64,000 bases of DNA, from NCBI GenBank assembly GCA_000497125.2, contig CM035320.1, forward strand, positions 814,001-878,000, read 5' to 3'. Shown one piece after another: positions 3,236 to 60,916 of the stretch. Each line of letters starts with the position of its first letter. Positions within the stretch are counted from its first letter, which is position 1. Source of the DNA: Spironucleus salmonicida (lineage: Eukaryota > Fornicata > Diplomonadida > Hexamitidae). The notes under the pieces were generated by a model. That model ran no database searches, was not told the DNA's origin, and worked only from the letters and a program-made list of their open reading frames with translations. The translations under genes were made by a program, and so were the position numbers.

Positions 3236-3592
3236 ATGAACACCGAAAGGCTGTCTTTGACAAAACTGCATGCCACACCTTCCATGCAGACGTACAACCG
3301 CCAGCTAGCGTCCTCAGATGCTTCAATGCCGTTCAACGCGATCGGCACATAGCTGGTACCACAAGTTGGGACGATAGTGACGACGAGGTCCGGAAAAGTC
3401 GCATTTTCGGCTATGTAGGACAATGCAGATATCCCAGCGTGCCTAGTACAAAAAGTGAGGTCGCTGTACGCCGAAAAGCCGGTGACTGTGCGCCCGCAGA
3501 AAGTAGAGATCTCGGGCAACGCAATGCGCGGTCTGGTGGGCAGAAAGTGCTGCGAGGACACGGACTGCAGAAACTGGGAGCGCAAGGTGTGA
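3236..3592 (+). CDS. Hypothetical protein, 118 aa
   Basis: ATG 3236 directly follows the AT-rich divergent element; TGA at 3590-3592. Two TAG codons read as Gln. Basic protein with a cysteine cluster near the C-terminus (GRKCCEDTDCRNWERKV). No family recognised. Its last ten codons lie inside the left arm of inverted repeat IR1, so the right arm carries only the 3' tail of this gene, preceded by unrelated sequence. An antisense frame runs into the Hsp70 frame but lacks a credible start. Confidence 0.5.
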
Positions 3593-4340
3593 GGTATTGG
3601 TTTTGCACGATTTGTGTTCTGGCAGCCTCGCGCGGGAATGTGAGTTCGCGAAATGGAGGAACTCTGGGCCGAATTCCGCCAGCCTGTGCGTTGTGGGGCC
3701 ATTTTGGATCCATTTAAAGCAATTTGGCCGAAGAGACGAACGGGTGAGAATAAGGTGCGGCAGCAGTTTTCAGGAGACTCCCGGGCTCCCATCCGAGCGT
3801 AATCGCAAGCGAATAAAGTAATAGTGCAAATATACAGTATAATACATAGTTCCGCTTCAACAATGCCCGCGCAGATGGCACAGCGGCGCACTGGCCTGGA
3901 GATGATGTGTGATGGGACGACCGGGAGGGTTTCTGGACATGATGGGTGATGCGAGTAGACAGCCGGTATCTCAGAACGGGATGGGCGGCGGAGTCACAAA
4001 AAGAGATCGCATATGCACGACGTGGGGCTCTGCCAGGGTGCGTGGAAAATATCCGCGAGGCCATGGCTGGTGGGCGGAGCCTCAGGGCTGGAAGGTCGCG
4101 TTAATGGGCACATTTCTGCCGCAATTACCGCAGGCCGAACGCGCAAACGCACAACATGGTGGGTAGCGTTAAATGATTGGTCCCCTCTGGCGACGGCCTG
4201 CTGCAAAAAGATTAAAATGCTGCTAGCCTACCTGCTGCTCCCTTCGCCAGCACGCATCTCGCCCACGCCAACCCCCACGGCACGCAGGGTGCCGCAGATT
4301 CCCCTTCCCGTCCGCTCCACGAACCCCACGAACCCCACCA
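3593..4340. other. GC-rich stretch in IR1 with no supported gene
   Basis: Several long frames exist on both strands (for example minus 4064 to about 3330, plus 4013-4780), but their composition is poor, they contradict one another, and one overlaps E2 in another frame. A short AT-rich element near 3825-3850 and a 28-codon frame at about 3863 are the only promoter/gene-like signs. Probably 5' flank of E2. Confidence 0.4.
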
Positions 4341-4784
4341 ATGACCGCCCAGCTCTCCCGCCTCCGCAAAGAGCTCGTCGAGTTCCAGCAGTTCCCCGCC
4401 TTCGCCGGCGGCCCGGGCGACGACCTGCGGCACTGGAAGGTGGCCTTCCAGGGGCCCGCGCAGACGCCGTTCGAGGGCGGCACCTTCCACCTCGCCGTGG
4501 CGTTCCCGCTCGAGTACCCGTTCAAGCCCCCGCAGGTGCGGTTCACGAGCCGGGTGTTCCACCCGAACGTGAGCAGCGCGGGCGACATCTGCCTGGACGT
4601 GCTGAAGGCGGAGTGGAGCCCGGTGCTGAGCATCTGCCGCGTGCTGATCAGCATCCAGAGCCTGCTGGACGACCCGAACGCGATGAGCCCGCTCAACGGC
4701 GACGCGGCGCGGCTGTTCCGCGAGAACCGCGCGCAGTACGAGCGGCAGGTGCGGAAGTACGTGCGGGCCTACGCGAGTGAGTGA
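4341..4784 (+). CDS. Ubiquitin-conjugating enzyme E2, UBC4/UBE2D-like (IR1 left copy)
   Basis: 147 residues, the standard length of the UBE2D/UBC4 core. Family signature HPN at 74-76, conserved Gly81, catalytic Cys84 in GDICLDVLKAEWSP, and YPFKPP at 59-64. The enzyme takes ubiquitin from E1 as a thioester on Cys84 and passes it to E3/substrate in the cytosol. Very GC-rich, with no TAA/TAG codon used. tRNA-Ser starts only ten bases after the stop. The right-arm copy differs at residues 11 and 81, so this one is the better candidate for the working enzyme. Confidence 0.95.
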   Translation: MTAQLSRLRKELVEFQQFPAFAGGPGDDLRHWKVAFQGPAQTPFEGGTFHLAVAFPLEYPFKPPQVRFTSRVFHPNVSSAGDICLDVLKAEWSPVLSICRVLISIQSLLDDPNAMSPLNGDAARLFRENRAQYERQVRKYVRAYASE

Positions 4785-4794
4785 AGCCTCTACA

Positions 4795-4876
4795 GACTGG
4801 GTGGCCGAGCGGTTAAGGCGATAGCCTGCTAAGCTATTATACTCTGTATGCGTGGGTTCAATTCCCATCTCAGTCG
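4795..4876 (+). tRNA. tRNA-Ser (anticodon GCU), IR1 left copy
   Basis: 82-base cloverleaf: acceptor GACTGGG pairs with CTCAGTC (one G-T), D-arm GCCGAGCGGTTAAGGC, anticodon loop CTGCTAA (GCT), long type II variable arm (TATAC/GTATG) and T-arm GTGGGTTCAATTCCCAT. The long variable arm plus GCU identify serine. No intron. Discriminator base G. Confidence 0.95.
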
Positions 4877-4891
4877 ATTTGCGGGAGCAGA

Positions 4892-5284
4892 ATGGCCGTC
4901 GGAGGCGAGGATCGGCAGCGCAGGTGCGCGATCCTGGCAGCGGCTGGGAAGGCATGCGCAGTCCGCATATATCTGCGGCAGCCTGCGCAGGGCGAGAGGG
5001 ACGTCCCGTGCAGTTTCGCGTGTGGCCGTAAGCTGCAACGGGACGTCGCGAGGCAGCGTCTGCGTACTCAGCCCAGCGGAGTGCGTTATCCCGGCTGCCG
5101 CGCCTTGGGCCTATCGAACGTACTTGGTCGGCATCAATAATGTGCCGAAGTCTCCCGCGCCAGGCCGGGAGGCTGCTAGGAGAGGTGCGCCCGCCCGCAG
5201 CCATTGCGCTGTCTGGTGGGTATTCACTGCTGCCCGGCGGAGGAGGCCACTCTTGCACACTCGGCACGCCGGAGCGGAAACTGA
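4892..5284 (+). CDS. Possible small cysteine-rich protein (130 aa), uncertain
   Basis: Open from ATG 4892 to TGA 5282-5284 with TAA/TAG as Gln; basic, with about ten cysteines. It fills the gap between tRNA-Ser and the convergent leucine-rich repeat gene and is kept in both IR1 arms. However, GC-rich DNA gives long chance frames when only TGA terminates, and no family is recognised. Confidence 0.28.
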
Positions 5285-5295
5285 AAATGAAAGGA

Positions 5296-5985
5296 TCACT
5301 ATCTGACATAGACGCCGCAGTCGGGGACGATGACGCTGGGAGGGCAGTTGGTGTCGGGGATGACACAGTCATCGCAGTTCTCGAGGCCGCACTTGAAGAT
5401 GAAGTTGGGTCTGGTGGCGAGGCCGGACTCGCAGCTGAGGTCGGCGTTGCAGTCGACGTGCATCTCGACGAGGAACTTGAGGGCGACGAAGCCGGTGGGG
5501 ATGGTGCCGCTAAGCTGGTTGCAGGTGAAGTGGACCTCCTTGAGGAAGAGCAGGTTGCCCATGCAAGTAGGGATGGCGCCGGTGATGTCGTTGTTGTTCA
5601 TGTAGACGAACTGCACGTGGGCGAGCTGGCAGATGCACTGTGGGATAGCACCAGTGATGCCGGCATTGTTGGCCTGGAGGTACTGGAGCCCGGTGAGCTT
5701 GCAGACCGAGGCGGGGATGGTGGTGGTCATCTTCTGGTCGTTGAGGTACAGGGACTTGAGCACGGGGAAGGAATCAAAAACATCGGCGAGCTGGCCCGTG
5801 AGCCCGAAGCCGCTGAGGTCGAGCCCCACGACGAAGTCCTGGCTGTTGCAGGTCACGCCGGCCCAGGTGCACACGGAGGCGCTGGTGGTCCAGCCGACGG
5901 AGCCTTTCCAGCTCGCACCGCCGTTGGCCGCGTAGATGGCGTCAAGCGCTTGGCGCTGTGTGAGGACTGCCAGGATGGAAATCAT
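5296..5985 (-). CDS. Plant-type leucine-rich repeat protein, secreted-like (IR1 left copy)
   Basis: 229 residues, ATG 5985, one TAG read as Gln just before TGA 5296-5298. N-terminal cap resembles LRRNT (QALDAIYAANGGASW, then CTWAGVTC), followed by about five 23-24-residue repeats of the LxxLxLxxNxLTGxIP plant-specific type, and a Cys-rich C-terminus (CGLENCDDCVIPDTNCPP) like an LRR cap. A short hydrophobic start (MISILAVL) could act in secretion, but no long signal peptide or membrane anchor is visible. Such proteins in diplomonads are usually surface or binding proteins. Identical to the copy at 13428. Preceded by a TATA box at 6162-6170. Confidence 0.85.
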
Positions 5986-6161
5986 TGAGGGAAGGGAAAC
6001 GTGGTAGGGGCGCGTAGGGCCGCGTGGTGTAGGGTGGAGGAAGGGAGGGAAGGCATATGTCCTGGAAGGGTGCCTGGGCGCAGTCCCGGTCCTGCTGGGC
6101 TGGCGCCGCTAGCACATCGAGATGCAGCGGCATAACCTGTCTAGGCCCAGTCCGTGGTCTG

Positions 6162-6170
6162 CCTTTTATA
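6162..6170 (-). promoter_or_regulatory. TATA box (TATAAAAGG) upstream of leucine-rich repeat gene
   Basis: Canonical TATAAAAGG on the minus strand, 177 bases upstream of the ATG at 5985, in GC-rich DNA. Same in the right arm (13243-13251). Unlike the AT-rich elements of other genes here. Confidence 0.5.
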
Positions 6171-6551
6171 CTGATGGCCCGCCCACATCAAGCATACTGC
6201 GCTCCTGGATAGGTCGGGTTGAGAGCATCGTACCGCCCGCCGCCGAGATATACCTGCAGCGTACGGCATCCCCTCCTGCACGTTGAGGGTATTACGATAT
6301 AATGTAAATACTTGCGTAAATTTTTTATATTGTTTCCGAAAATAGTTACTCATGAATACATTAATAATACATTAATAAAACCCCTCATGGAAAAACTAAA
6401 ATTGCAAAAAATAATATCATTGAATATATATAATATTTTAATATATTTTAAATGAATTATACATATTATAATTGATTTAATAAACAAGATCGTTCGTAGC
6501 ATTTCTCGCCTATTTACTTTATATAATATTATGATATAAAAATCTACCAAA

Positions 6552-9500
6552 ATGATTCTATCGCATGCGCTTATAGTATTGTATACTGCCGTGGACTTCA
6601 CGAAGCTCAACAACGTCTAGAATGAGAACTTTGTCCTGAACAACAATATCACGCTGAACATCTTAAACCAGCCCTTGATCGACCAGTTTGTTGGGTCCCT
6701 CTCAGGTGCCCGAAACACGCTTAAAATCACGGAAATACAACCTGGGGGCTCTCTCTTCCAGTAATTCGGCGGTAGTTTCAGCAGCGTAAGTGTAATTGTC
6801 GAATTCGAAATCGGGTACTCCATCGTGCTCGCGCAGGAGTTGCGTGGTGCTCAGCTGCGTGACGCAGCGTTCCGTATCTAGAGTGACGGCGTGCGCAACG
6901 CCCCTGAAATTACATTTTTCAGCGAAATCACAGACGCGACGCTTGGGCGCTGCGTGTTCACCATCGTGTGCAACGCGGCTCCCAGCACGTCATACAGGAT
7001 TTTTGGGATCGCCTTTTCTATCAATAAACTACATACAGAGGGACTTGAGGTGCATATTATTGCCAAAAATGCGTTCCAAGTTGCCGGACTCTGCCGATAA
7101 CTCGGTGCCACATTCCCAGCGCTAGTAACCCTGGGAGGACAGGAAATTGAGGAGGTATTTGGTATAGCGCTCGCCAGTTCACAGCCCCTGAACGCTCTGA
7201 TAGTTCGTATTGTTATACGTGGGATGCGCCTGGTCTGTGGTATCGCGCGGGATGTGTGTGGGGTCGAAAACTCACAAATTTTGCTCATTTTCACCTTGAA
7301 AGAGGGCACTACGGTCATATACGGTGTAGCACGGTCAATTGAAGGACCGTTACATGAGTTATAATTGCAGATAGGTGGAATTTTCCGCTCCAATATGCCC
7401 GCCGAACTCGCGTTTTTGGGTGGTGATCTAGGCGCAAAAACAACGATTTCTCACGTTGCGATTCTCGCAGAGTTCAGCCTCACGGGTGGAGCCCTTAAGA
7501 TGGCGCTACTGGCATCTGGATCTGCTCTTGGCGCCGAGGTACGCTTTCTGGCGATGAACGCATCTATAGAGGCCGAACATAGCGCTTTGTAGCCGATCTA
7601 CTGTTTCTCTGCTGCGGTATAAGATGTAATTATCGAAATGTTGGCCATGAATTTCTCGCTACAGGGGTCGATATCGGGCGACTTTGGAGGTTTCGGAATC
7701 GCTCCCTCGTTAGTGGGGTGCAAATTTACGAATTTTACGATCAATTTCGCGTTGAGAATAAGCGAAATTTCAGGCACCTTGACCTACTGCGCACTGGGTA
7801 TTTATGTGGAAGAAATCAGAATCAACAACGCATCGTTTTACAACTACGTCTTAATAAGTTCTGCTGCTAACGCGATCGGTAGCACAATCTTCGGACTCGC
7901 CAAACAGCTGGTGCGGTCCGACTTGAATTATGTGATCGTATAAAACTAGATCTAGGTAAGATATGCGTCAATTTAGGCATTTGCTGGCCTCGCAGACCAG
8001 CTCATGGATGTGACGATTAACATTCTTGTGCTCTGTGGCACCGTAAATTTGCAGAACCAAGGACAGATTTGCGGAATCGCCAGAATGGGGAGAAAATCGT
8101 ATTTTGTGAGCCTCATGATCAACTTTCATATCGAGAGTTCCAACAACGCAGAGTGTATCTTGTTTTTCGATATTTGCGACAGTAACTAGTTCATAAATAT
8201 TGTCGAACAGGCGAATAACATGCGCTGTCTGAATGACGTGAAATACATCATAACCGACACAAAAAATAACAAGGTCAACTATTTTGCAATGCAAGGGTCT
8301 GGCAAAGAACGTATTTTGTAGACCATCAGCAGGGCCCAAATGAAAGCTGGAGCAGAGGTTAACGAGCTCTTGAAAACGGACAAGTGGGAAGTTGACTCTA
8401 AAAACGATGGCCTTGTGCGCCTTAAAAATTTCTTCTCCGTGAAATCTACGTAATTTGCAGAGGAGGCGAATCCAGAAATTCAGCCGTTCACTCAGTAGCA
8501 AACGACGGCCTTTTTGTACATAAACATTAAAAATCAAGAGAACCTCTGCTTCGATAACTGCTAGGGTACATTTGACGGTAAATAATTAGTATGTAAACAG
8601 GGATATACTGGCGTCGGTTGTGAAGAGTTTGAGTGCAAGGTAGATTTCTGCTAAGATGGTGCTACATGCAATAGAGTTCACGGCTGCGAGTGTGTATCCG
8701 GAAAAGGTGGGGTCTAGTGTGAGATCGACCTGTGTCCATTCTGCCTAGGTGGATATTCTAATTGCGATACGAAATTTAGCTTTCCAGTCTGCATAAACGA
8801 CTAGACAACAACTTGTCATCATGGTATTGTAGTTAATAACTTTTGCGCATGTTCAGACGGATACACAAGTGTTAGCGGTATTTGTGATAAATTTGCTTGT
8901 AAGGACTCGGATGATTGCAACGGAAATTTATGTAAGGACGAGATCTGCCACTGTGTGAGTAAAATGGGTGGAATAAGCTGCTAGTTTTGCACAACGCCTG
9001 GTTAACGGGATTGTAAAAATATATGCTCAACAGGTAGCTGCTAGTACGGTACTGCGTGTGTTTATTTGACGGGAAATAGTGGGATTTGGGAATGTTCAGC
9101 GTGTATGGTAGGTCATATTCCCCCATTGTGTTAAGACTGTTTTGTTGGCTATATTAAGCATGGTGATGCCTGTCTTTAAAAATGTGAAGAGTGTCATACC
9201 GGGGACTGCTATTTTCTAGAACCATGTGCTCAGCCAGCCGCACAATGTAATACTAAATGCGTATCATGCTTACCAGGCATCAGCGGCGAAAGATGTGACA
9301 AATGCCCAGTTGGCTAGCAATTTTATGAATACTCTTGCTACCCCTTAGAAGACGAGAAGCTAACCAATGGAGTGTGCATTAAGATTGAATCGAAGACTAT
9401 CTGTTTTTCTTGCCTTGCAGATTTTATTTTGATTGACGATTAATGCATTTTCTAGTGTCTTCCAACAAATTGTATTAATGGTGAGTGTTAACCCGACCAA

Positions 9501-12500
9501 TCTTGTCTGTGTAAACGCTACGCCCTGGGAAAACATTGTGATTCTTGTTAGTCAGGTACGGGTAGCTTTATGGGATAATGCCTTTAAATATGTAATGGAT
9601 GTAACGGAGATTGTTACTATGATCGTGGAGAGATAGTATGTTCTTCCTGCAATGATAATTTTTAAGGACCACCATGTTAGGGATGTTGGACAGGGTTTAT
9701 CAATATAGGGACTGAATGCCTAGAAGTCTGTCACAAATGCTAAGGTGATAGATGCTATATTACTATTTCTGGTAACTTTGTATGTTTGGGCCCATGCTAA
9801 GCCGGATATATCTTGGACGGTTGCTTTACTTGTGATACATCTAATGGGTTTGTGGCGGCTCTTGGCGGATGTTTTCAGCAATGCACCACGTGCTCCCAGG
9901 GGACCTGCTTCCAGACTCCATCCGGAATACAGTGTTCGAGCTGCTCTGGATCGTTCACTGGCCAGTAGTGCGATGTTTGCCTGGATGGTTTTGTCTTCGC
10001 TGAAGGCACGTGCCATACATAGGTAACCGACGATGAATGCTACATTGACGGGACTGGGAATATGATCTGCTTGCAATGCCTCGCAGGCAAGGTTCTCGTC
10101 GACCAGCAATGTCTAGTAAAGTGCGTGCTTCCAGACTGCGCGGGGGAGTGCTATCACAAGGTCCCCTCATACTTTTGCCGCAGCTGTTACTTCGGGTTTA
10201 TATTCCATGAGAACAAGTGCTACCCGCCCACTTCAAACCCGAACGGGGACTGTTTCGTTCTTCAAGACAGAACGTTATGTAGTTGCTACAAAGGGTACGC
10301 TGGACCCTCTTGTGACGAGTGCTCGGAGCTGGAGAAAGGGGGCAGCTGCTACTACCGAAACGACGTAGCCACCGGGTCTTGTTTCAGTAACGCCGACGAC
10401 TCTCTGGATAGCTTCTGCCAGCAGTGCTAGTACAACTACGCGATGCCGCTCTGTCTCAGCTGCGCAATGGGATACGCAATGGATTCATCTGGTGAGTGCA
10501 ACGAGTGCCAGCCTGGTTACACCAGCTCCAATTCTCTGCCTCCGAGCGAGAGAGCAATTATTGGAGATAATAGGTGTCTGATTTCGTGCGCAGATTGCGC
10601 TCAGGGGAACTGCTTCTATGCGGGAGAGTCGATCTTATGCGCGTCCTGTTCGCCTGGCTACGCTATTTCCACAAACTGTCTCTAGTGCGAGGATGGCTTT
10701 GCTGAGTTCGGGGGCTACTGCCTTACCTCTGGTACCAGTTCCTGTGGGGAGGACAACTCCGGCGATACGTATTGTACAACGTGCGGGCCATAGTAGTAGT
10801 CATTCAACTGCTCCTTGTGCACAGTAGAGGGCACTTTCGGGTCGGATTGTAAGCAGCACGCAACTCACTTCCCCGGAGAGTGCTACTAAACTAGTAGCAC
10901 CGTAACATGTACAGATGCACCGTGCCTTAGTTTTGACATAGCATCTAATTAGTGTCTTATCTGCAGGTCAGATCTTATAAATATAAAGGGATATTGCGGA
11001 ACGATTACTCTCCCACAAAACGACAAACTGCGAGGTAATTGCATAAATGTAGGTACTTACTAGGTATGTGGTACGTGTTAAAAAGGCTGGTCTGGAAATA
11101 TCTGTTCAGAATGTGATAAAGGTTATATAAGATGTTAATGTAATACTGAATTATTTTAACATTGTTGTTGTCCGCTATTACCATTATTGAATGGAGTATG
11201 TTTTACTACTCAACTAACCTCGATAATCTGTGAATACTGTGGACCTAGGTATGAATTATTATAAAAATAATGCGTTCAATAAAATATCTCTATTACTAAG
11301 TTAGTTACAATAGTTTTAGTTCCCATATTAACAGGATTTTTATTATTAATAATTTTGGTATTGTTGGTTAAATTATTTAAAGTAAAAAGAAGATAAATTT
11401 TTATTTCGGTGAAGCGAATCATCAAGCGTATTGGGCCGCATCTTGTATTTGTTATATTATCCTAGGCATTAGCAATTATTATTGCAATCCAGGATGTTTA
11501 TATTGGCGACTTTTTCATGTAAATTTCAGTAAATATCTTCTCAATGATACCATTCATACTGGCATTCTTCTTTTTAGCTGTTCCAACATATAAGTAATTT
11601 TTCTATAATCTACCGTCGCACTTCTTTCTTTTTGTATTATCAGCACTAATCGAACTTAGTTTCCATTTCACTTAGTATATAGTAGTTTCTGAGGTAGTAT
11701 AAAATTTTGGGGAGTAAATTTATAAACTGGCTGGACCCCTTATAACACTACTAATGTGTATATGTCTTGCTGGATTCCGGTTTAAATCTTAGTAAAAATT
11801 ATCAGTTTTTATAGCAGTTACTGTCCCACTCATATCTTAGATTATGTATGCAATTTTAGATTCTGAATAGTCAGGTTATTTTTCAGAATCATCTATTTGG
11901 AATATTATATCTGGATAAATGATGGTTACTATAGCAATCTTGTTGAATGGTGTGTAATTTTACTTGTTTGACCTCATTTTAGGGAAATATGGTGAAATAG
12001 AGGCTATTGGACGGCTTGCATTAGCTTCATTCATGGTAAATAGCATGATTGGGCTTACAAATCCTGGAGAAATAATCAATTCCATACTTTAGTATGATAT
12101 ATTCTTTTCTAGTCTATGTACGTAAATATTTTTTAACTTTATAAACATAATAATAATGATGCATATTTCAGCAGTAGAATTTGGAATTAACCTAATTTCA
12201 TCAGCTATTTGGGCATAATTTATATCAGCAGTAGGTGAATTTTATATCGCTAGTAACAATAGTTACAATATATCCCTTATATCTCTTATTTTATAGTCTT
12301 TATCATTAGTTATAGTTTTCGTTAGTTTACTATATTTTAATATAAGAAGCTCATATTGGGATCATCGTAACAATGACAAACTTTCTAAAGAGTCTATAGC
12401 AATAACAGGTGTAAATGAATTCATTAAATCCAGAAGATAATATAAACAACTGTTCAAAAAAATGCAATAAAATAAACTTCATGACAATTTGAGCTAAGTT

Positions 12501-12800
12501 ACACATAATTAAGTACTAAAAGATATGTAATCTAAATTAAATTAGATGAATTAACCATACAACTAAACTACACTGAGGTAAAATACTGGAAGTTGCTTTA
12601 TGTAAGATATAGTAAAACAAAAATCATCTAGATAAGTGTATTACCTTAAAAATAATGACACATTAATTACTAAGCTACCGCAGAAACAAAACAATAAAAC
12701 TGTTGGTTAATTGTAATTGGCCTCAGATTAAATTTGTTAAAGCTAAGATTTATCTTTTCATAGTATTCATTAATACATGGACTAAAATAAATTTAAGTGA
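6552..12800 (+). CDS. Giant EGF-like cysteine-rich polytopic membrane protein, paralogue 1
   Basis: 2082 residues in one frame from ATG 6552 to TGA 12798-12800, with dozens of TAA/TAG as Gln. Regions: short hydrophobic leader (MILSHALIVLYTA); beta-rich ectodomain, residues about 20-660; EGF/Ephrin-receptor-like Cys modules with CxxGYxGxxC-type spacing, about 665-1566; about ten hydrophobic segments, 1583-1930; Gln-rich basic tail of about 150 residues. The likely role is a surface receptor or adhesin; the multi-pass end distinguishes it from single-pass cysteine-rich membrane proteins of diplomonads. The 5' part is GC-rich, the 3' part AT-rich. AT-rich element (TATATAATATTATGATAT) just upstream of the ATG. 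It fills the spacer of IR1. Confidence 0.88.
9171..11119 (+). repeat. Near-identical tract shared with paralogue 2 (28014-29964)
   Basis: Direct copy offset by 18845 bases without net insertion or deletion, with only scattered substitutions, inside two genes that are otherwise clearly diverged at the base level. Covers mid to late EGF-like modules. Both edges are sharp. Confidence 0.93.
11430..11660 (+). repeat. Second short near-identical tract (matches about 30275-30505)
   Basis: Same 18845 offset; covers membrane segments 2-4. Flanked on both sides by diverged sequence, so identity is patchy within one alignment. Confidence 0.88.
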
Positions 12801-13109
12801 TTATTACATATAATAATGATATAATTTGTATAAAAATTTATCTTAAGATTAACTATAAAGTGTACTATTATTTCCATATCAGATATAAACTAAGAATAAA
12901 TTAACTGTTAATATAATGATTTATTAGTATTATTATACAGGCCTCTTTATTATTTTACTACAAAATTAAAGCAATACATTATTTTTATTTTGTTATGTTC
13001 TATTACACTTAATATTTAAAAATATATTATTACATTTTTAAAATACTAATTATAAAACATAGAATTTAATTACGAATTTGTTTATCATTTATTTTAATTT
13101 TATGATCTG
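12801..13109. other. AT-rich intergenic DNA
   Basis: Between the stop of the giant gene and the right arm of IR1. Simple AT-rich sequence; I see no gene. Confidence 0.7.
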
Positions 13110-13242
13110 ATTATATCGTAATATCCTCAACGTGCAGGAGGGGATGCCGTACGCTGCAGGTATATCTCGGCGGCGGGCGGTACGATGCTCTCAACCCGAC
13201 CTATCCAGGAGCGCAGTATGCTTGATGTGGGCGGGCCATCAG

Positions 13243-13251
13243 TATAAAAGG
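13243..13251 (+). promoter_or_regulatory. TATA box upstream of leucine-rich repeat gene (right copy)
   Basis: TATAAAAGG, 177 bases before ATG 13428. A 63-codon frame starting at 13280 in another phase lies in the leader and may be an upstream ORF. Confidence 0.5.
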
Positions 13252-13427
13252 CAGACCACGGACTGGGCCTAGACAGGTTATGCCGCTGCATCTCGATGTG
13301 CTAGCGGCGCCAGCCCAGCAGGACCGGGACTGCGCCCAGGCACCCTTCCAGGACATATGCCTTCCCTCCCTTCCTCCACCCTACACCACGCGGCCCTACG
13401 CGCCCCTACCACGTTTCCCTTCCCTCA

Positions 13428-14117
13428 ATGATTTCCATCCTGGCAGTCCTCACACAGCGCCAAGCGCTTGACGCCATCTACGCGGCCAACGGCGGTGCGA
13501 GCTGGAAAGGCTCCGTCGGCTGGACCACCAGCGCCTCCGTGTGCACCTGGGCCGGCGTGACCTGCAACAGCCAGGACTTCGTCGTGGGGCTCGACCTCAG
13601 CGGCTTCGGGCTCACGGGCCAGCTCGCCGATGTTTTTGATTCCTTCCCCGTGCTCAAGTCCCTGTACCTCAACGACCAGAAGATGACCACCACCATCCCC
13701 GCCTCGGTCTGCAAGCTCACCGGGCTCCAGTACCTCCAGGCCAACAATGCCGGCATCACTGGTGCTATCCCACAGTGCATCTGCCAGCTCGCCCACGTGC
13801 AGTTCGTCTACATGAACAACAACGACATCACCGGCGCCATCCCTACTTGCATGGGCAACCTGCTCTTCCTCAAGGAGGTCCACTTCACCTGCAACCAGCT
13901 TAGCGGCACCATCCCCACCGGCTTCGTCGCCCTCAAGTTCCTCGTCGAGATGCACGTCGACTGCAACGCCGACCTCAGCTGCGAGTCCGGCCTCGCCACC
14001 AGACCCAACTTCATCTTCAAGTGCGGCCTCGAGAACTGCGATGACTGTGTCATCCCCGACACCAACTGCCCTCCCAGCGTCATCGTCCCCGACTGCGGCG
14101 TCTATGTCAGATAGTGA
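13428..14117 (+). CDS. Plant-type leucine-rich repeat protein (IR1 right copy)
   Basis: Same 229-residue protein as at 5296-5985 with no amino-acid change seen: LRRNT-like cap, about five LTGxIP-type repeats and a Cys-rich C-terminal cap. Transcribed away from the giant EGF-like gene, which both copies flank. Confidence 0.85.
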
Positions 14118-14128
14118 TCCTTTCATTT

Positions 14129-14521
14129 TCAGTTTCCGCTCCGGCGTGCCGAGTGTGCAAGAGTGGCCTCCTCCGCCGGGCAGCAGTGAATACCCACCAG
14201 ACAGCGCAATGGCGGAGGGCGGGCGCACCTCTCCTAGCAGCCTCCCGGCCTGGCGCGGGAGACTTCGGCACATTATTGATGCCGACCAAGTACGTTCGAT
14301 AGGCCCAAGGCGCGGCAGCCGGGATAACGCACTCCGCTGGGCTGAGTACGCAGACGCTGCCTCGCGACGTCCCGTTGCAGCTTACGGCCACACGCGAAAC
14401 TGCACGGGACGTCCCTCTCGCCCTGCGCAGGCTGCCGCAGATATATGCGGACTGCGCATGCCTTCCCAGCCGCTGCCAGGATCGCGCACCTGCGCTGCCG
14501 ATCCTCGCCTCCGACGGCCAT
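14129..14521 (-). CDS. Possible small cysteine-rich protein, right copy (uncertain)
   Basis: Mirror of 4892-5284; the frame stays open despite base differences near 14210. Same doubts as for the left copy. Confidence 0.28.
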
Positions 14522-14536
14522 TCTGCTCCCGCAAAT

Positions 14537-14618
14537 CGACTGAGATGGGAATTGAACCCACGCATACAGAGTATAATAGCTTAGCAGGCTATCGCCTTAA
14601 CCGCTCGGCCACCCAGTC
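14537..14618 (-). tRNA. tRNA-Ser (anticodon GCU), IR1 right copy
   Basis: Exact mirror of 4795-4876; all stems intact, so probably functional. Confidence 0.94.
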
Positions 14619-14628
14619 TGTAGAGGCT

Positions 14629-15072
14629 TCACTCACTCGCGTAGGCCCGCACGTACTTCCGCACCTGCCGCTCGTACTGCGCGCGGTTCTCGCGGAACAG
14701 CCGCGCCGCGTCGCCGTTGAGCGGGCTCATCGCGTTCGGGTCGTCCAGCAGGCTCTGGATGCTGATCAGCACGCGGCAGATGCTCAGCACCGGGCTCCAC
14801 TCCGCCTTCAGCACGTCCAGGCAGATGTCGACCGCGCTGCTCACGTTCGGGTGGAACACCCGGCTCGTGAACCGCACCTGCGGGGGCTTGAACGGGTACT
14901 CGAGCGGGAACGCCACGGCGAGGTGGAAGGTGCCGCCCTCGAACGGCGTCTGCGCGGGCCCCTGGAAGGCCACCTTCCAGTGCCGCAGGTCGTCGCCCGG
15001 GCCGCCGGCGAAGGCGGGGAACTGCTGGAACTCGACGAGCTTTTTGCGGAGGCGGGAGAGCTGGGCGGTCAT
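14629..15072 (-). CDS. Ubiquitin-conjugating enzyme E2, right copy with altered active-site loop
   Basis: 147 residues, as at 4341, but residue 11 is Lys instead of Glu and residue 81 is Val instead of the nearly invariant Gly of the HPN...GxICL signature, three residues before catalytic Cys84. HPN, Cys84 and the length are intact. The change is a single base (GGC to GTC). It could weaken catalysis, mark an early decaying duplicate, or be a sequencing error. Confidence 0.9.
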   Translation of the reverse strand: MTAQLSRLRKKLVEFQQFPAFAGGPGDDLRHWKVAFQGPAQTPFEGGTFHLAVAFPLEYPFKPPQVRFTSRVFHPNVSSAVDICLDVLKAEWSPVLSICRVLISIQSLLDDPNAMSPLNGDAARLFRENRAQYERQVRKYVRAYASE

Positions 15073-18738: not shown

Positions 18739-18812
18739 AAGAAGTGGTGTTCAAATTTTAATTTTTAAAATGAATATATTAATAGATATAATATATTATA
18801 ATAATATAATTT

Positions 18813-47249: not shown

Positions 47250-47530
47250 TTACTATGCCGATGTTGAGCGAGAAATATTAATATTCTAGCTTAGTTACTT
47301 TGAGTTGAAAAAGTTTGTCTAATTTAAAGTAAGCGTCTTAGACATTTATTTTAAGTAAACAGTCTTAGTTTATGGTGTTAAGTAAGGATCTAGTTGATTA
47401 AGCTACCGAATATTCATTTAGCAAAATGATAATATCAATAATACAAGTTATATTATATAATAAAAATGATATACTAATGCATTAAGAGTATTATATTATT
47501 AAGTTAATTAAAAATTTAACTTCTATAATC

Positions 47531-48769: not shown

Positions 48770-48867
48770 GGAAGTTCTGTTTTTTACTATATATTTTATG
48801 TAAGAATAATAGAATTTTCATCAAAATTTTGATACTGCACATTGAGTAAAATTTAATAAGGGATTTT

Positions 48868-49500
48868 TATAAATTTATTACGCTATCTGTGGGCTCGCGG
48901 CTGCCCACTGCGATGCTGAACAACCACTACACAGGGCTGCTGAGCTACACACGTAACGGGGCGCTGCGCGGAATGGTGATGCCGCTGTACGCGTTCGTGC
49001 AGGCGCACCACGCCGTGTGCCGCGGGGGGTCCTTCGCGATCTTCAGCGGCACCGTGCGCTCGCTTGCAATCATCGCCTCGTTCATCTGGATCTACTGCGC
49101 TGACCCCACTTATAATTTCAACTGCGTGTTCACTGTGCAGACCCTGACGATCCTGCTGCTCGCCATTGGCGGCCTCGTCCATCGCTTTGCCCTCGAGCGC
49201 CACGGGGGCCGGTTTGCCGAGGAGTCCGAGCGCGGCGAAGACCTGCCCAGCGCACCACGCACCCCGGTGAACAAGACGAAGGAACCTGTGGAGGAGCCGT
49301 TCGACACGGGGAACTTCCTCTCCAACCAGTCCGTGAACTTCCTGCAGCTGAGCAAGATTGGCGCCAACCGCAACACGAGCCTGCTGGAGAGCCTCGTGAA
49401 CAGCTCCTACGCCAAGACGCAGGTGATCAAGTCCAACCTCGAGGTTACCACGGACTCCTCGGACCACTCTAAGCCTGGCGGGCTGGATACCACGCAGTGA
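48868..49500 (+). pseudogene. 5'-truncated copy of the transporter gene
   Basis: Carries only the last 210 or so codons of the 531-codon gene at 43881; identity begins at TATAAATTTATT (48868). The upstream DNA is unrelated and gives no ATG with the missing membrane segments. The frame itself is intact to TGA 49498-49500. Confidence 0.8.
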
Positions 49501-49595
49501 GGTATTTGTCACTATTCGCGGTTTTGGAGAAACGGGATTTTCGGTTTCTCTGGGTTGCGGCCAGGACCGCGAGCAGTGGTTCCCGCGGCGGCAGA

Positions 49596-49901
49596 ATGAC
49601 GTCCCCGCTCAACTTCTTCACCTTCACCCCCGCCGGGTGCAACCTCGACTACATTCAGGTACCGCCGCGGAGCCCCCAGAAGCCCAGTCCTATGGTCAGC
49701 CAGTCCCCGCACCGGCAGCGGATCCGGCGCAACGCGGCCTCCATGCTGCTCCGGGGCGGCTTCCAGCTCCCGCCACAGCTGGGTGCGCTCCATACCGTGG
49801 AGACTCTCGGCTAGTCCGCCAGGCTGCCCTCGCTGCGCGCTCCCCTGCCTAGGCAGTTCTCAGACGGGCAGGTGCAGCCCGGTGCGGCGGGATTCTAGTG
49901 A
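49596..49901 (+). CDS. Hypothetical protein, 101 aa (IR3 right copy)
   Basis: Identical to 43480-43785 as far as can be seen; ATG 49596, TGA 49899-49901. Intact, though its upstream neighbour is truncated. Confidence 0.5.
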
Positions 49902-49910
49902 ACGAATGTC

Positions 49911-50207
49911 TCACTACGGCCCCTGCATCATGCTCTGGCTCGAGATGTCCCTGTTCCCCAGCAGCAGCGTCCCGTCCCCGTTGTCGTCCCGGTCGAGGCA
50001 GACCGTGCCCAGCGACTCTAGGTGGGGCAGGTCCTCCGCGATCGGCAGGAGCTTCGGCGCCCCGTACTCGTTGTCGGTGATCTGCCTCTGCTTTCGGGCC
50101 AGCGTCTTGCGGATGGAGCGCATTCGGAATTTGGAACGGTCAAAATGTGCCTCGGCCGCGCGCGGGCGCGAACTCGGGGTTGGGCGCGGGGCGTGCTCTG
50201 CGCACTA
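49911..50207 (-). pseudogene. 5'-truncated copy of the 43045 gene
   Basis: The internal ATG (50123) and the last 70 codons are intact, with an in-frame 24-base insertion further upstream; beyond 50207 the sequence is unrelated and supplies no in-frame ATG nearby. If translation really starts at the internal ATG, this copy would be functional. Confidence 0.5.
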
Positions 50208-55881: not shown

Positions 55882-55890
55882 TTTTCTGCC

Positions 55891-55980
55891 ATGATATCCT
55901 CAATACTCCGATTGGAAGGTCCAGGTACTACTCACGCGCACTTAATAACGGTTGCTGCAGGATGGACATTCATAAAATGA
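55891..55980 (+). CDS. 29-codon leader ORF in frame with the next gene
   Basis: ATG 55891 to TGA 55978-55980 encodes MISSILRLEGPGTTHAHLIT and nine more residues. It is in the same phase as the gene at 56059, separated by the TGA and 26 sense codons. Either a leader ORF, or the N-terminus of the same protein interrupted by a TGA that both repeat arms share. Confidence 0.4.
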   Translation: MISSILRLEGPGTTHAHLITVAAGWTFIK

Positions 55981-56058
55981 TTCCTTTCTAAATGCGTAAT
56001 AGATTCCAATACGAGTTATACTAAAAAATTAAAACCATAAAGAGGATATTTTTAACAT

Positions 56059-56817
56059 ATGAAAATACAACTACTAGATACATAATTGGTTCTGGAAACT
56101 AAAAAATGTTATATTTTACTTTCGATATATGCGGTAGATTAGTAGCAAGCCCTAATATTATTGAGTGCCTGCCACTGGTAATGCTACTACTATCAAGTAC
56201 CTAGGGTTAGTAGCTTTAGATAACTATCTAAAAATATGTATACACTAAGAAATCTGGAAATGTAACAAAAATAGCTACACTAATACCCGTCTTTACGTAT
56301 TCGCAACAATCCAGAAACACCCGAAGCTAAAATTTCGAATTTTAGCAAATATACATATGTATATTGTAAATATTCGTTTCGTAAAATTAACTATTCCCCC
56401 AATACTACTTAAGTTCTTTCAGAAACAGTTTCTGTAAAGAAGTAGTTTAAGGAAATATTATCATAAAATACGGTTATACTAATTTGTAATATGGTGAACC
56501 TTAAGCAAAAGGAAACTATCATCCCCAGTACACAACTAACAGAGTTTTCGTCCGTGAAGTCTCTAGCCCTCGCTTCAGTGAAGGCTGGAAACCTCAACAC
56601 CAGAAAGCTTGCCGAGATGGCTCCTGGGGCGAACCTGATGGAGGCAGCAGGTGATCTTGCAGCCTAGCACCGGGTGCTGGTATTCGCCCTACAGGTACTG
56701 GAAATGAACCTACCAAAATCTCAGCGAGAGCTCTGCGCGAGAATGATGCGGAACCTGACAGCAACCAGCACTACAAAGGCCTATCGCGCCATTCTGAGCC
56801 ATATAGAATATGCGTGA
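56059..56817 (+). CDS. Hypothetical protein, 252 aa (IR4 left copy)
   Basis: ATG 56059, TGA 56815-56817, TAR codons as Gln. The first 140 residues are poorly patterned; the last 105 are clearly helical and amphipathic (LAEMAPGANLMEAAGDLAAQ, then RELCARMMRNLTATSTTKAY) and GC-richer. An internal ATG at 56491 would give only this 108-residue part. No family recognised. Intact in both arms. Confidence 0.6.
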
Positions 56818-56989
56818 ATTAACTTAACCTTCGTCGTGTACATGTGAGATTTTTACTTCACCTTATTCCACTTCAAAGGGGCCATAGATCTTGTCCGGAA
56901 TATTCGTATGTAATGAGAAGAGGTAAATATATAAATAAATATTGCATGCTTTAATTTTCATTGTAGTAATTCTATAGGATCCGGGAATC

Positions 56990-57210
56990 CAATCAAAATA
57001 CAGCACACATTAGCTTATAAGCGGAGGCCTGAGGTGAATCAAGTAGGTTGACCTAGCGGGCCTTAAATTTGGTGGGATCGAATCATGGTACCAGGACAAT
57101 CATGTGATAGAGGTATACTATTCCTGGTCCGGGGAGTAAATGCTTAACTAGGTACAGCTTGATGAGCCTTTCGCAAAGCTCTTGTAATACTGGCGGGTGG
57201 GCTTGCAATA
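56990..57210 (+). ncRNA. Candidate structured non-coding RNA (IR4 left copy; strand uncertain)
   Basis: GC-richer block without convincing coding frame but with several stems: ACCAGGA (57090-57096) with TCCTGGT (57122-57128) enclosing ATAG/CTAT, GAGC.TTT-CGC-AAAGCTC (57164-57181), and AGGTTGACCT. GGATCGAATC (about 57075) resembles a pol III B box (GGTTCGANNC) and TAGCTTATAAGCGG (about 57013) could be an A box. Both arms keep it to the last base of IR4. Identity (SRP or other RNA) not established. Confidence 0.4.
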
Positions 57211-57650
57211 ATATTGTAGAAGTATAGTGTTATAATTGTAATCCTGATTAATATCGAAAATATGTTGTTATATGCTACCTATAGAATAGTGTATAAACTA
57301 TGGATACCTTTTACTAGTTAAGTATGTAAATTATATAGAACCTATCATATAATTAAGATCCTATTGAGTATATAATATCGTTAGTTTTTCCTTTGGATAA
57401 ATATATCCAGCAATTTTTATAAGAATAAATACATTGAATTAGTGATTTTAATTTTGTTATTTATTATTAGCAGTGACTTAAAGATAATAATTGGGATATT
57501 ACTTACTAAAATCAATGTAATAGCGTAAATTTATGTGCAAATCTTTTTTAAACCTATTTTTATATGAGACATGTTTATGTTTAACTACTAATTATATAAT
57601 TATATAATATTGGTTAATATTACTTTTCAAACCACTCCAAATTTCATATA
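57211..57650. other. AT-rich DNA with IFT56 promoter
   Basis: Spacer of IR4; AATTATATAATTATATAATAT at about 57590-57610 (first 20 bases of the run) lies 40-60 bases before the IFT56 ATG. Confidence 0.5.
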
Positions 57651-59243
57651 ATGAACTACGTTAAAGTTTCAGAGGCGTTTGAAAAATCAAAGACTATGGC
57701 AGCTCAACAGGCGGAAAATGAAATTCCATCACTAGCATAATTCATTGAGAAACGAGACTTTATTGGAGCTGTCACACTTCTTAATTTCTAAAAATAAACA
57801 AACACTGTTCCAGAAGGAATACATCCTGATTTATGGTTAGCGTATTGTCATTTTCACTTAGGAAACTCTGATGAGGCATTAAGAATCTATACTGAATTAA
57901 ATTAGTAAGAACCTCCTCCATAAGACCATAATTAGCTAGAACTTTATAAGGCAATATGTCTACTTTATTTAGGTAGAATGGACGAAGCTCGCTCAGTTGC
58001 AACTAAACTTCCTGCATCACCACTCTAAAACAGGTTATTATTTCATGCATGTTCTAGGTTATTAGATGAAGATTCATTATAATAATATCATTAGAAGCTC
58101 AAAAATATCTCTCCAGATTAGATGGCTCTTGCTGCGGTACATTTTTTGAGAACACATTATAACTAAGCACTTGAATGTTATGAAGAGGTATTAGCAGTAT
58201 AATAGGAATATTATGCTATATATATGCATATGGCACTTTGTTTTTATAAATTAGGCGAATATGAGAGATGTGAAGAATAGTTATAAAATTATAGAGATCA
58301 TGCTGACGATTCATTTACTTCTATTAATCTCTTGGCAGCTACTAAATTTAAGATGGGAAAATTAAAAGAAGCTAATTAACTCTTAGACTAGATGAAAAAT
58401 GATCATTCTATATCTGAATTACCATAATTTAAGCATAATAAATGTCTGTATTCTGGTTTAAATGCAGCCACTCATATTCTTTAAACATTAACATCTGCAG
58501 TACCTGAAGCACGCGCTAATCTTTTACGTCTTTATATTGAGTAACGCTAGTATAAGGCAGCATATGATTTAATGTAGAATTTTGAACCAGCGGTATCTTA
58601 AGAATATTGTTTGAAAGCGGCTGGATTCGCCTATTTAGGACAACATACTACTGATATGGAAGCTTTAACATATGCTAGAGCAGCGTATGCAACTGTGGGT
58701 TAATCTGATGCAGATAAAGATACTCTATTAGGTCGTCGTTCTATGGCTGCAGCTTACTTTTTAGATGGAGAATTTGATGATGCCGCAGTTTATTATGATT
58801 CGATCGCCGAGATACCTAAAGAATCAGAAGAATAATTTGATCTCAATTATGGTCTCACATTAGCAGCAATAGGAAAAGATGATTAAGCTCTGGAATTCCT
58901 TGCCAGACAGATTAATTCACCATATTTTACATTAATCCATAAACAATGGCTTGCTAGATTATTTATTCGCTCAAAACGTGCTAAAATGGCATTTGAACTA
59001 TATTAAAAAAGCGAATCAAACAATCCAAGAACTGCACAGTTATTGAGAATCATTGCTCATGAATGTTTTGCAGTAGGTGAATTTAAATTAAGTGCTGAAG
59101 CAAGTAAAATTTTAATTAAAATAGATTCTGCTAGCGAGAACTTAAATGAATATAAAACGATGTTTAGAGCAGCTATGGCAGCGAGCACTTTAAAAGAGAG
59201 AGGTAAAAAAGTAACGCCACCTAAAATGGTTATGGAAGAGTGA
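57651..59243 (+). CDS. IFT56: Intraflagellar transport protein IFT56 (TTC26/DYF-13)
   Basis: 530 residues, ATG 57651, TGA 59241-59243 (human 554). TPR-type helical repeats along the length. Family matches in order: FIEKRDFIGAVTLLNF (family DFLSQRDYIGAITLLEF), LWLAYCHFHLGN, LQNRLLFHACSRLLDE, ALCFYKLGEYERCEE, VPEARANLLRLYI and GRRSMAAAYFLDGEFDD. IFT56 is an IFT-B subunit that carries motility-related cargo into the flagellum. At least twenty TAR codons stand at Gln positions, good evidence for the code. It occupies the IR4 spacer. Confidence 0.96.
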
Positions 59244-59587
59244 TGGAAATACTATTTTAGTCAAAGTATTTAAAGTTGTAATTTTAAAATGAAACATCGG
59301 TATTTAGATATTATATGTAATTTTAATTTAATTCATGCTTGATTTTTCTAAAAATCTAGAAAATTAAGTATTGAAAATCATTTTTATATACTATATATTT
59401 TATATCTCAATTAATTAAATTAAAATACTGATAAATCTAATGTTAGTTATGACGGTAAAAAATTATCTCTATATATATTTTATAAAATGACATTATAAGT
59501 GTTACTATACTAACTTTATAGGAATATGATAATAGTATTATATTCTCATAAAACAGGGATTAATAGTTATTATTTATCATGTTATTG
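59244..59587. other. AT-rich intergenic DNA
   Basis: Between IFT56 and the right arm of IR4; no gene seen. Confidence 0.6.
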
Positions 59588-59808
59588 TATTGCAAGCCCA
59601 CCCGCCAGTATTACAAGAGCTTTGCGAAAGGCTCATCAAGCTGTACCTAGTTAAGCATTTACTCCCCGGACCAGGAATAGTATACCTCTATCACATGATT
59701 GTCCTGGTACCATGATTCGATCCCACCAAATTTAAGGCCCGCTAGGTCAACCTACTTGATTCACCTCAGGCCTCCGCTTATAAGCTAATGTGTGCTGTAT
59801 TTTGATTG
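59588..59808 (-). ncRNA. Candidate structured RNA, right copy
   Basis: Mirror of 56990-57210, stems preserved. Both copies end at the exact IR4 border. Confidence 0.4.
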
Positions 59809-59980
59809 GATTCCCGGATCCTATAGAATTACTACAATGAAAATTAAAGCATGCAATATTTATTTATATATTTACCTCTTCTCATTACATACGAATATTC
59901 CGGACAAGATCTATGGCCCCTTTGAAGTGGAATAAGGTGAAGTAAAAATCTCACATGTACACGACGAAGGTTAAGTTAAT

Positions 59981-60739
59981 TCACGCATATTCTATATGGC
60001 TCAGAATGGCGCGATAGGCCTTTGTAGTGCTGGTTGCTGTCAGGTTCCGCATCATTCTCGCGCAGAGCTCTCGCTGAGATTTTGGTAGGTTCATTTCCAG
60101 TACCTGTAGGGCGAATACCAGCACCCGGTGCTAGGCTGCAAGATCACCTGCTGCCTCCATCAGGTTCGCCCCAGGAGCCATCTCGGCAAGCTTTCTGGTG
60201 TTGAGGTTTCCAGCCTTCACTGAAGCGAGGGCTAGAGACTTCACGGACGAAAACTCTGTTAGTTGTGTACTGGGGATGATAGTTTCCTTTTGCTTAAGGT
60301 TCACCATATTACAAATTAGTATAACCGTATTTTATGATAATATTTCCTTAAACTACTTCTTTACAGAAACTGTTTCTGAAAGAACTTAAGTAGTATTGGG
60401 GGAATAGTTAATTTTACGAAACGAATATTTACAATATACATATGTATATTTGCTAAAATTCGAAATTTTAGCTTCGGGTGTTTCTGGATTGTTGCGAATA
60501 CGTAAAGACGGGTATTAGTGTAGCTATTTTTGTTACATTTCCAGATTTCTTAGTGTATACATATTTTTAGATAGTTATCTAAAGCTACTAACCCTAGGTA
60601 CTTGATAGTAGTAGCATTACCAGTGGCAGGCACTCAATAATATTAGGGCTTGCTACTAATCTACCGCATATATCGAAAGTAAAATATAACATTTTTTAGT
60701 TTCCAGAACCAATTATGTATCTAGTAGTTGTATTTTCAT
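59981..60739 (-). CDS. Hypothetical protein, 252 aa (IR4 right copy)
   Basis: Mirror of 56059-56817; ATG 60739, TGA 59981-59983, intact. Convergent with IFT56. Confidence 0.58.
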
Positions 60740-60817
60740 ATGTTAAAAATATCCTCTTTATGGTTTTAATTTTTTAGTATAACTCGTATTGGAATCTATT
60801 ACGCATTTAGAAAGGAA

Positions 60818-60907
60818 TCATTTTATGAATGTCCATCCTGCAGCAACCGTTATTAAGTGCGCGTGAGTAGTACCTGGACCTTCCAATCGGAGTATTGAGG
60901 ATATCAT
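60818..60907 (-). CDS. 29-codon leader ORF, right copy
   Basis: Mirror of 55891-55980; the TGA is present here too. Confidence 0.4.
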   Translation of the reverse strand: MISSILRLEGPGTTHAHLITVAAGWTFIK

Positions 60908-60916
60908 GGCAGAAAA

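What the first reader, a model, noticed from the sequence alone, without database searches (positions are those of the whole stretch)
3561..60916. Four independent long inverted-repeat pairs in one 64-kb window, each enclosing intact genes
Arms of 2743, 1164, 1316/1340 and 1329 bp are near-identical within pairs, unrelated between pairs, and separated by spacers of 6806, 1757, 4354 and 2377 bp. Each spacer holds different complete genes (giant EGF-like gene; RNase P-like RNA with two genes; GTPase and small genes; IFT56). This is a repeated architecture, not a single duplication. It could be a genome-wide palindromic duplication process maintained by arm-to-arm conversion, allowing inversion of spacers, or an assembly/ploidy artefact.
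Basis: partly seen in the sequence, partly recalled or inferred. Interest (0 to 1): 0.88.

Follow-up and report, generated by a model that had tools for sequence, protein, structure and literature searches.

The report
Genome-wide spaced inverted gene duplications
In what is very probably a tiny single-celled parasite of fish, many genes occur as two almost identical copies facing opposite ways a few thousand bases apart, and the two copies probably keep correcting each other; similar pairs were known in Giardia for one gene family, but here several kinds of genes have them.

Summary
Four spaced inverted repeats have arms of 2743, 1171, 1302/1303 and 1329 bp differing at 6, 2, 1 and 0 places; pairs are unrelated to each other and flanks are unique. 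The genome (14.47 Mb, TAR=Gln) is very probably Spironucleus salmonicida. The pattern is not local. In the 314 kb read (two contigs), 18 of 24 near-identical pairs are inverted (16 of 20 without derived rows). Surveys lean the same way: same-score neighbouring tRNAs 18 of 25; kinases and papain-like proteases 7 of 10. Arms carry LRR, papain, pyruvate kinase, uL6, Myb, EF-hand and tRNA genes, are GC-rich (0.50 against 0.33 single-copy) and mostly end abruptly. Best reading: real inverted duplications, homogenised by (GC-biased) gene conversion and retained because recombination between inverted copies does not delete. Giardia's identical vsp pairs, all inverted in strain WB, are the closest known case. 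The 2022 genome paper reports 19.2% duplicated sequence but, in the text I read, not orientation. Read support and spacer inversion could not be tested.

The parts
3561..6303 (+). pair 1, left arm (2743 bp, GC 0.62): secreted-LRR-like ORF 5296-5985 (-), tRNA-Ser(GCT) 4795-4876 (+)
   Evidence: this ORF itself was not scanned: the LRR label rests on the Pfam hit of a 77%-identical DNA relative on C5 and on reading the translation
6304..13109 (.). pair 1 spacer (6806 bp) with Cys-rich 2089-aa ORF 6531-12800 (+)
13110..15852 (-). pair 1, right arm, reverse complement of the left arm with 6 differences; tRNA-Ser 14537-14618 (-)
17158..18328 (+). pair 2, left arm (1171 bp, GC 0.39): papain-family protease 17385-18236 (-), inside the arm if it starts where the right-arm copy does (the open frame runs on to 18428, 100 bp past the arm)
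18329..20071 (.). pair 2 spacer (1743 bp) with a 341-aa ORF 18770-19795 (weak Nrap_D2-like hit under Pfam cut-off); no Rfam match
20072..21242 (-). pair 2, right arm, with the second papain-family gene 20164-21015 (+)
43212..44513 (+). pair 3, left arm (1302 bp, GC 0.635); an open frame 43881-45476 (-) runs from the spacer into it
44514..48867 (.). pair 3 spacer (4354 bp) with dynamin-like GTPase 47372-48769 (+)
48868..50170 (-). pair 3, right arm (1303 bp): ORF of 195 aa 48913-49500 (+), no Pfam hit, GC3 0.87
55882..57210 (+). pair 4, left arm (1329 bp, GC 0.39): ORF of 252 aa 56059-56817 (+), no Pfam hit
57211..59587 (.). pair 4 spacer (2377 bp) with IFT56 57564-59243 (+)
59588..60916 (-). 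pair 4, right arm, 100% identical to the left; ORF 59981-60739 (-)
9057..11172 (+). direct repeat copy A, inside the Cys-rich ORF 6531-12800 (97.2% to copy B)
27902..30017 (+). direct repeat copy B, inside the Cys-rich ORF 25160-31648

Best explanation
These are real, gene-sized inverted local duplications (spaced palindromes), one local case of a widespread architecture in what is very probably Spironucleus salmonicida. A short stretch holding one or a few genes is copied into the neighbourhood. When the copy lies inverted, homologous recombination between the two cannot delete one of them, so the pair survives. The arms then keep correcting each other by gene conversion, which is probably GC-biased, so they stay near-identical while DNA next to them diverges. 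Crossovers would only flip the spacer, which should be harmless for genes lying whole inside it (IFT56, the dynamin-like GTPase). SHOWN: presence, identity, abrupt edges in the window pairs, several gene types, inverted excess in the samples, high GC, uneven identity within one palindrome. INFERRED: conversion as the homogeniser, GC bias as the cause of the composition, survival of inverted copies as the cause of the orientation excess, spacer flips.
For: Four pairs confirmed. In C5:614001-878000 plus C1:500001-550000, of 24 non-overlapping pairs >=700 bp and >=97%, 18 are inverted; 16 of 20 without four rows derived from third copies. tRNA survey (62 places listed, 63 of 903 candidates scored): of 25 neighbouring same-score pairs <=30 kb, 18 inverted; 37 of 62 have such a neighbour. 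Kinases and papain-like proteases: near-identical-score pairs <=35 kb, 7 inverted, 3 direct; at 3-35 kb, 7 and 1. Conversion signs: (1) arms GC 0.499, other duplicates 0.587, single-copy 0.326; arm GC above adjacent flank GC in 15 of 15 pairs; none of 5000 circular shifts reaches the difference. (2) Third-position GC of nine chosen arm ORFs: 0.81-0.89 in seven, 0.35-0.40 in two; seven Pfam-supported genes outside arms 0.21-0.67. (3) In palindrome C5:788381-804032 an outer block is 90% identical (GC 0.32-0.34) and the next block 99.8% (GC 0.57), 311-359 bp apart. (4) C5:656240-676407 has three mirror blocks at 99.3, 99.5 and 99.95% separated by stretches that do not align above shuffles. (5) Three LRR-bearing pairs: 98.8-99.9% within pairs, the other two pairs 91% and 77% to arm 1. 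Kin: identical vsp genes of Giardia WB occur only as inverted pairs.
Against: No reads, no population data and no second Spironucleus genome were at hand, so conversion and survival of inverted copies are indirect. High GC could partly reflect codon choice in well-expressed genes (uL6, pyruvate kinase) or the GC of the source gene; WD40, ArsA and DUF676 genes outside arms also reach GC3 0.55-0.67, and tandem/direct duplicates are at least as GC-rich as inverted ones, so GC marks duplication, not inversion. In GC-rich arms several frames are open, so the choice of ORF is partly uncertain. Window pairs 2 and 4 are only modestly GC-rich and could simply be young. An unpaired LRR copy at C5:678998 is 97.1% like a paired one, so recent copying also occurs. 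The orientation excess is moderate: window alone 4 of 5 (p=0.375); outside the held DNA 16 of 23 tRNA pairs (p=0.09) and 6 of 9 protein-family pairs (p=0.51); all classes pooled 38 of 52, p=0.0012, rows not fully independent.
Confidence: 0.66

Rival explanations
1. Recent, independent inverted duplications by a replication-based or fold-back process; near-identity only means youth and no conversion is needed. The orientation excess is then a mutational bias.
For: Edges of the window pairs are abrupt with unrelated flanks; pairs 2 and 4 have the base composition of ordinary genes and 0-2 differences; different gene types are involved; an unpaired LRR copy is 97.1% like a paired one.
Against: GC3 of 0.81-0.89 in seven of nine chosen arm ORFs and blocks of 90% and 99.8% in one palindrome are hard to get from youth alone; nested mirror blocks separated by unalignable gaps; three LRR-bearing pairs are 98.8-99.9% identical within pairs while two of them are only 91% and 77% like arm 1.
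Confidence: 0.22
2. Assembly or ploidy artefact (hairpin reads, haplotype misjoins) in a tetraploid cell.
For: If the genome is the published one, it is HGAP on PacBio RS II reads with a 14.6-kb N50 (PMC9509377), and short reads used for polishing cannot tell the arms apart; no read check could be run here.
Against: Missed-adapter artefacts give palindromes without spacer and without two unique outer flanks (established knowledge); here spacers are 458-19,624 bp in 14 pairs on C5 and the four window pairs have unique flanks on all sides. The four window units are 4.1-12.3 kb long, shorter than the read N50. Arms differ at 6, 2 and 1 places in three pairs. The authors checked reads at the two largest duplications only. 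In Giardia such pairs tended to end contigs rather than be created, and one was reported before that survey.
Confidence: 0.07
3. Arms are the long terminal inverted repeats of different mobile elements, and the spacers are their cargo.
For: Inverted arms around genes look superficially like a TIR element.
Against: No target-site duplication of more than 1 base at 4 of 4 pairs; arms of the four pairs unrelated; arms hold ordinary cellular genes (tRNA, papain protease; elsewhere pyruvate kinase, uL6); of the four spacer ORFs scanned none matches a transposase (other spacer ORFs not scanned).
Confidence: 0.02
4. A switch: arm-to-arm crossover inverts the spacer to change expression or fusion of genes at the junctions.
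For: Arms of 1-3 kb at 99.8-100% identity are good substrates for crossover; the human P6 palindrome does invert, though rarely (PMC3723533, abstract). One open frame, 43881-45476 (-), runs from the pair 3 spacer into the left arm; if it is one gene, a flip would move its 5' part to the other arm copy.
Against: The genes supported by Pfam, or by agreement of the two arm copies, lie whole in an arm or a spacer, so a flip leaves them intact; the 43881-45476 frame has no Pfam hit and its right-arm counterpart starts inside the arm (48913); IFT56 and tRNA-Ser are not plausible variable genes.
Confidence: 0.03

Closest known systems
Giardia inverted identical vsp pairs (G. lamblia WB, PMC2996952; G. 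muris, PMC7641422)
   Same: Pairs of identical genes head-to-head or tail-to-tail, a few kb apart, flanks nearly identical up to an abrupt divergence point; in WB 14 identical pairs, all inverted, and no identical vsp genes otherwise (section 14 read); in G. muris seven identical pairs, two head-to-head and five tail-to-tail, plus a cluster of four identical copies (passages).
   Different: There described for vsp genes, called 'cryptic'; here tRNAs, a ribosomal protein, enzymes, proteases and LRR genes, with arms up to 6.1 kb and spacers holding unrelated intact genes (in WB the DNA between is non-coding; in G. muris it holds genes too).
Long inverted repeats of homologous gene pairs in Caenorhabditis (PMC1803023)
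   Same: Near-perfect inverted gene pairs whose structure is maintained, with gene conversion proposed (abstract and passages).
   Different: Described as rare, with short spacers in the passages seen (126 and 414 bp); here frequent and with long gene-bearing spacers. Their comparative proof across species is lacking here.
Mammalian X/Y palindromes (PMC8981503, PMC3723533)
   Same: Arms above 99% identical and elevated arm GC (abstracts only).
   Different: Sex-chromosome, usually far longer arms (recalled); conversion measured there, inferred here.
Duplicated regions of the S. salmonicida genome (PMC9509377)
   Same: Very probably the same genome; 19.2% duplicated at >=2 kb and >=95%, GC 44.7% against 30.7% (parts 1-2 of 3 read).
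   Different: The text tabulates amount and GC, not orientation, spacer or mechanism for these units, though it suggests gene conversion for the surface-protein families; arms under 2 kb fall below its threshold.
Leishmania direct and inverted repeats used for gene amplification (PMC4028189)
   Same: Repeats spread over a protist genome (title and first abstract lines seen).
   Different: There linked to extrachromosomal amplicons; no such evidence here.

Membership tests
Gene-conversion-maintained palindrome (mammalian X/Y type) | inverted arms >99% identical around a unique spacer | tested here: met
   99.8-100% in four pairs
Gene-conversion-maintained palindrome (mammalian X/Y type) | arm GC above flanking single-copy DNA | tested here: met
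   15 of 15 pairs on C5; window pairs 2 and 4 only modestly (0.39 against 0.25 and 0.22)
Gene-conversion-maintained palindrome (mammalian X/Y type) | arms more alike within than between species, or observed conversion events | not testable with these tools
   no second Spironucleus genome or reads held
Giardia-type inverted identical gene pair | identical genes in opposite orientation a few kb apart, with abrupt divergence outside | tested here: met
Giardia-type inverted identical gene pair | near-identical dispersed genes occur only inverted | tested here: not met
   excess, not exclusivity: 18 of 24, 18 of 25 tRNA pairs
Giardia-type inverted identical gene pair | member genes are vsp | tested here: not met
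   arms hold LRR, papain, tRNA and other genes
TIR transposon | target-site duplication at outer ends | tested here: not met
   0-1 base at 4 of 4
TIR transposon | transposase in the spacer or termini shared between units | tested here: not met
   no shared arms; no transposase among the four spacer ORFs scanned; other spacer ORFs not scanned
Hairpin/missed-adapter assembly artefact | no spacer, no unique flanks on both sides | tested here: not met
Hairpin/missed-adapter assembly artefact | no single read spans the unit | not testable with these tools
   no reads available

The most novel reading that the evidence does not exclude
Across diplomonads, dispersed duplicate genes of any kind survive mainly when inverted, and the resulting local palindromes act as built-in repair partners. 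Arm-to-arm conversion then partly replaces allelic recombination in a binucleate, tetraploid and possibly asexual cell, and drives the GC-rich islands of these genomes.
Probability: 0.25. Interest if true: 0.78.

Novelty: new variant of a known kind. Interest (0 to 1): 0.52.

Why it matters
If it holds genome-wide, a published protist genome would have one of the densest sets of spaced palindromes known to me, touching core genes and not only surface antigens. It would help to explain the GC-rich duplicated islands, extend Giardia's unexplained inverted vsp pairs to a general rule, and give a natural system for testing why inverted duplicates outlive direct ones and how clonal polyploid cells keep gene copies functional.

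Tried and rejected
RNase P-like RNA in spacer 2: no Rfam match. TIR elements: rejected. Residual homology beyond arm edges (11 pairs and some gaps tested): none in the window pairs; beyond C5:788381 there is clear homology outside (z 44.6; its inner z of 26.4 reaches into the neighbouring block), the inner flanks of C5:639002 score z 5.5, both flanks of C5:780064 z 3.1, and the two halves of the centre of C5:656240-676407 z 3.0. Sensitive BLAST at 5/-4 gave many 53-58% AT-rich matches that I treat as noise. GC as a marker of inversion: rejected, because direct duplicates are at least as GC-rich. Ras family: no nearby near-identical pairs among 27 places. In one search, 115 of the 129 kinase rows and 27 of the 36 papain rows were entered; left out were second pieces, fragments and weak hits, the kinase on small contig C17, and the weak papain hits on C6 and C28. 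One search prints p-values for preliminary counts (17/20, 17/21, 23/29); use. ArsA (16082-17017) lies in the one window stretch not searched as DNA against the genome beyond arm 1; its single-copy status rests on the 264-kb self-comparison.
Full report
WHAT IS THERE. Self-comparison of the window gives four inverted pairs and one direct pair, with no matches between the pairs. Exact arms are 3561-6303/13110-15852 (6 differences in 2743), 17158-18328/20072-21242 (2 in 1171), 43212-44513/48868-50170 (one 1-base indel) and 55882-57210/59588-60916 (none in 1329). All edges are abrupt: up to 500 bp outside and inside the arms aligns no better than shuffled sequence in the four pairs.

WHERE IT IS. 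The window is G000:C5:814001-878000 in a genome of 14,471,397 bases in 37 contigs. Long frames such as IFT56 open only with TAA/TAG read as Gln. The 16 5S matches listed form an array on C9 (47 of 290 candidates scored), as published for Spironucleus salmonicida chromosome 9 (40 copies), and the size fits that assembly (14.7 Mb with 284 kb of gaps; PMC9509377, text parts 1-2 of 3 read). The species is an inference: 37 contigs here, 42 scaffolds there. That paper reports PacBio reads of N50 14.6 kb and 19.2% of the genome as duplicated (>=2 kb, >=95%), with GC 44.7% against 30.7%. It does not discuss orientation in the parts read, and 'inverted' is counted zero times in it. The 2014 genome paper also lacks the word (passage search). 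Literature searches on this point: of an open-licence library only.

HOW WIDESPREAD. In this 314 kb, 24 non-overlapping pairs reach 700 bp and 97% identity: 18 inverted and 6 direct. Four rows come from third copies matching both arms of another pair; without them 16 of 20 are inverted (p=0.012). C1 alone gives 3 inverted and 1 direct. For the rest of the genome I used family surveys, taking nearby hits of equal score as near-identical copies. For tRNAs, 62 places are listed (the tool scored 63 of 903 candidates), and of 25 neighbouring same-score pairs within 30 kb 18 are inverted. For protein kinases (115 of 129 rows entered) and papain-like proteases (27 of 36 entered), 7 near-identical-score pairs are inverted and 3 direct; one of the direct ones (C5:1626645/1628263) differs in matched extent and is probably not a true pair. 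Ras-like genes gave none. Outside the DNA that I hold, the tRNA (16 of 23, p=0.09) and protein (6 of 9, p=0.51) counts are not significant alone; pooled with the held DNA, 38 of 52 are inverted (p=0.0012; rows partly dependent).

WHAT THE ARMS CARRY. Arm 1: a small secreted-LRR-like ORF and a tRNA-Ser. Arm 2: a papain-family protease. Arms 3 and 4: ORFs of 195 and 252 aa without Pfam match. On C5 further arms hold an EF-hand protein, an LRR protein, a pyruvate kinase, a Myb-like protein and ribosomal protein uL6; the other five of the ten arm ORFs scanned had no Pfam match. Spacers hold other genes: a Cys-rich 2089-aa ORF, a dynamin-like GTPase and IFT56. IFT56 and the GTPase lie whole inside their spacers, so a flip would not break them. 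One open frame, 43881-45476, crosses an inner arm edge; whether it is one gene is open.

WHY CONVERSION. Four observations, none decisive alone. First, arms are GC-rich: 0.499 against 0.326 for single-copy DNA in the 264 kb; in 15 of 15 pairs the arm exceeds its flanks, and no circular shift of 5000 reaches the difference. Third-position GC of nine chosen arm ORFs is 0.81-0.89 in seven and 0.35-0.40 in two, against 0.21-0.67 in seven Pfam-supported genes outside arms. Second, identity is uneven within one palindrome: 90% (GC 0.32-0.34) next to 99.8% (GC 0.57) at C5:788381-804032. Third, C5:656240-676407 is a nested set of three mirror blocks at 99.3-99.95% with AT-rich gaps that do not align above shuffles, as expected if conversion preserves some blocks and the rest drifts. 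Fourth, three LRR-bearing pairs are 98.8-99.9% identical within pairs, while the other two stand at 91% and 77% to arm 1.

COUNTER-EVIDENCE. Direct and tandem duplicates are at least as GC-rich (0.587), so GC tells of duplication and not of inversion. Some genes outside arms reach GC3 0.55-0.67. Well-expressed genes such as uL6 may owe GC3 to codon choice. Several frames are open in GC-rich arms. Pairs 2 and 4 are close to ordinary composition and may be young. An unpaired LRR copy is 97.1% like a paired one. No reads or sister genome were available.

WHY INVERTED. The simplest account is survival: recombination between direct copies deletes one copy, between inverted copies it only flips the spacer. 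Mutational bias (template switching or fold-back) is the alternative; my data do not separate them. The Giardia record points to a general tendency: in G. lamblia WB all 14 identical vsp pairs are inverted and no identical vsp genes occur otherwise, with abrupt divergence 139-729 bp from the coding region (section read); in G. muris seven identical pairs are head-to-head or tail-to-tail, with other genes between, beside one cluster of four identical copies (passages).

ARTEFACT. Unlikely: spacers and unique flanks at every window pair, arm differences in three of four, unit lengths below the read N50, and kin with the same arrangement. It stays at 7% because no read could be checked.

VERDICT. 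Observation confirmed; interpretation partly supported; a new, broader variant of a known diplomonad arrangement.

Noticed in passing
G000:C5:692341-710852 (loci L016-L018): Tandem array of an about 1193-bp, GC-rich unit at 99.7-99.95% identity in shifted self-matches, directly abutting the 6.1-kb palindrome 710779-724074.
   Followed up: partly
G000:C5:656240-676407: Nested palindrome of three mirror blocks (99.3, 99.5, 99.95%) with unalignable AT-rich gaps; one block carries pyruvate kinase.
   Followed up: partly
window 6531-12800 and 25160-31648: Two giant Cys-rich ORFs (2089 and 2162 aa, 32 CXXC each) sharing a 97.2% direct repeat that drops to 80% downstream, as if partly converted.
   Followed up: partly
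G000:C4 about 795-857 kb and C7 about 1147-1174 kb: Clusters of identical-score tRNA genes in mixed orientation, suggesting nested palindromes.
   Followed up: no
G000:C17 and C7:832-834 kb; C23 and C1:912 kb; C28 and C6:990 kb: Small contigs carry kinase, Ras and protease genes with scores equal to chromosomal ones; possibly alternative haplotypes or unplaced duplicates.
   Followed up: no
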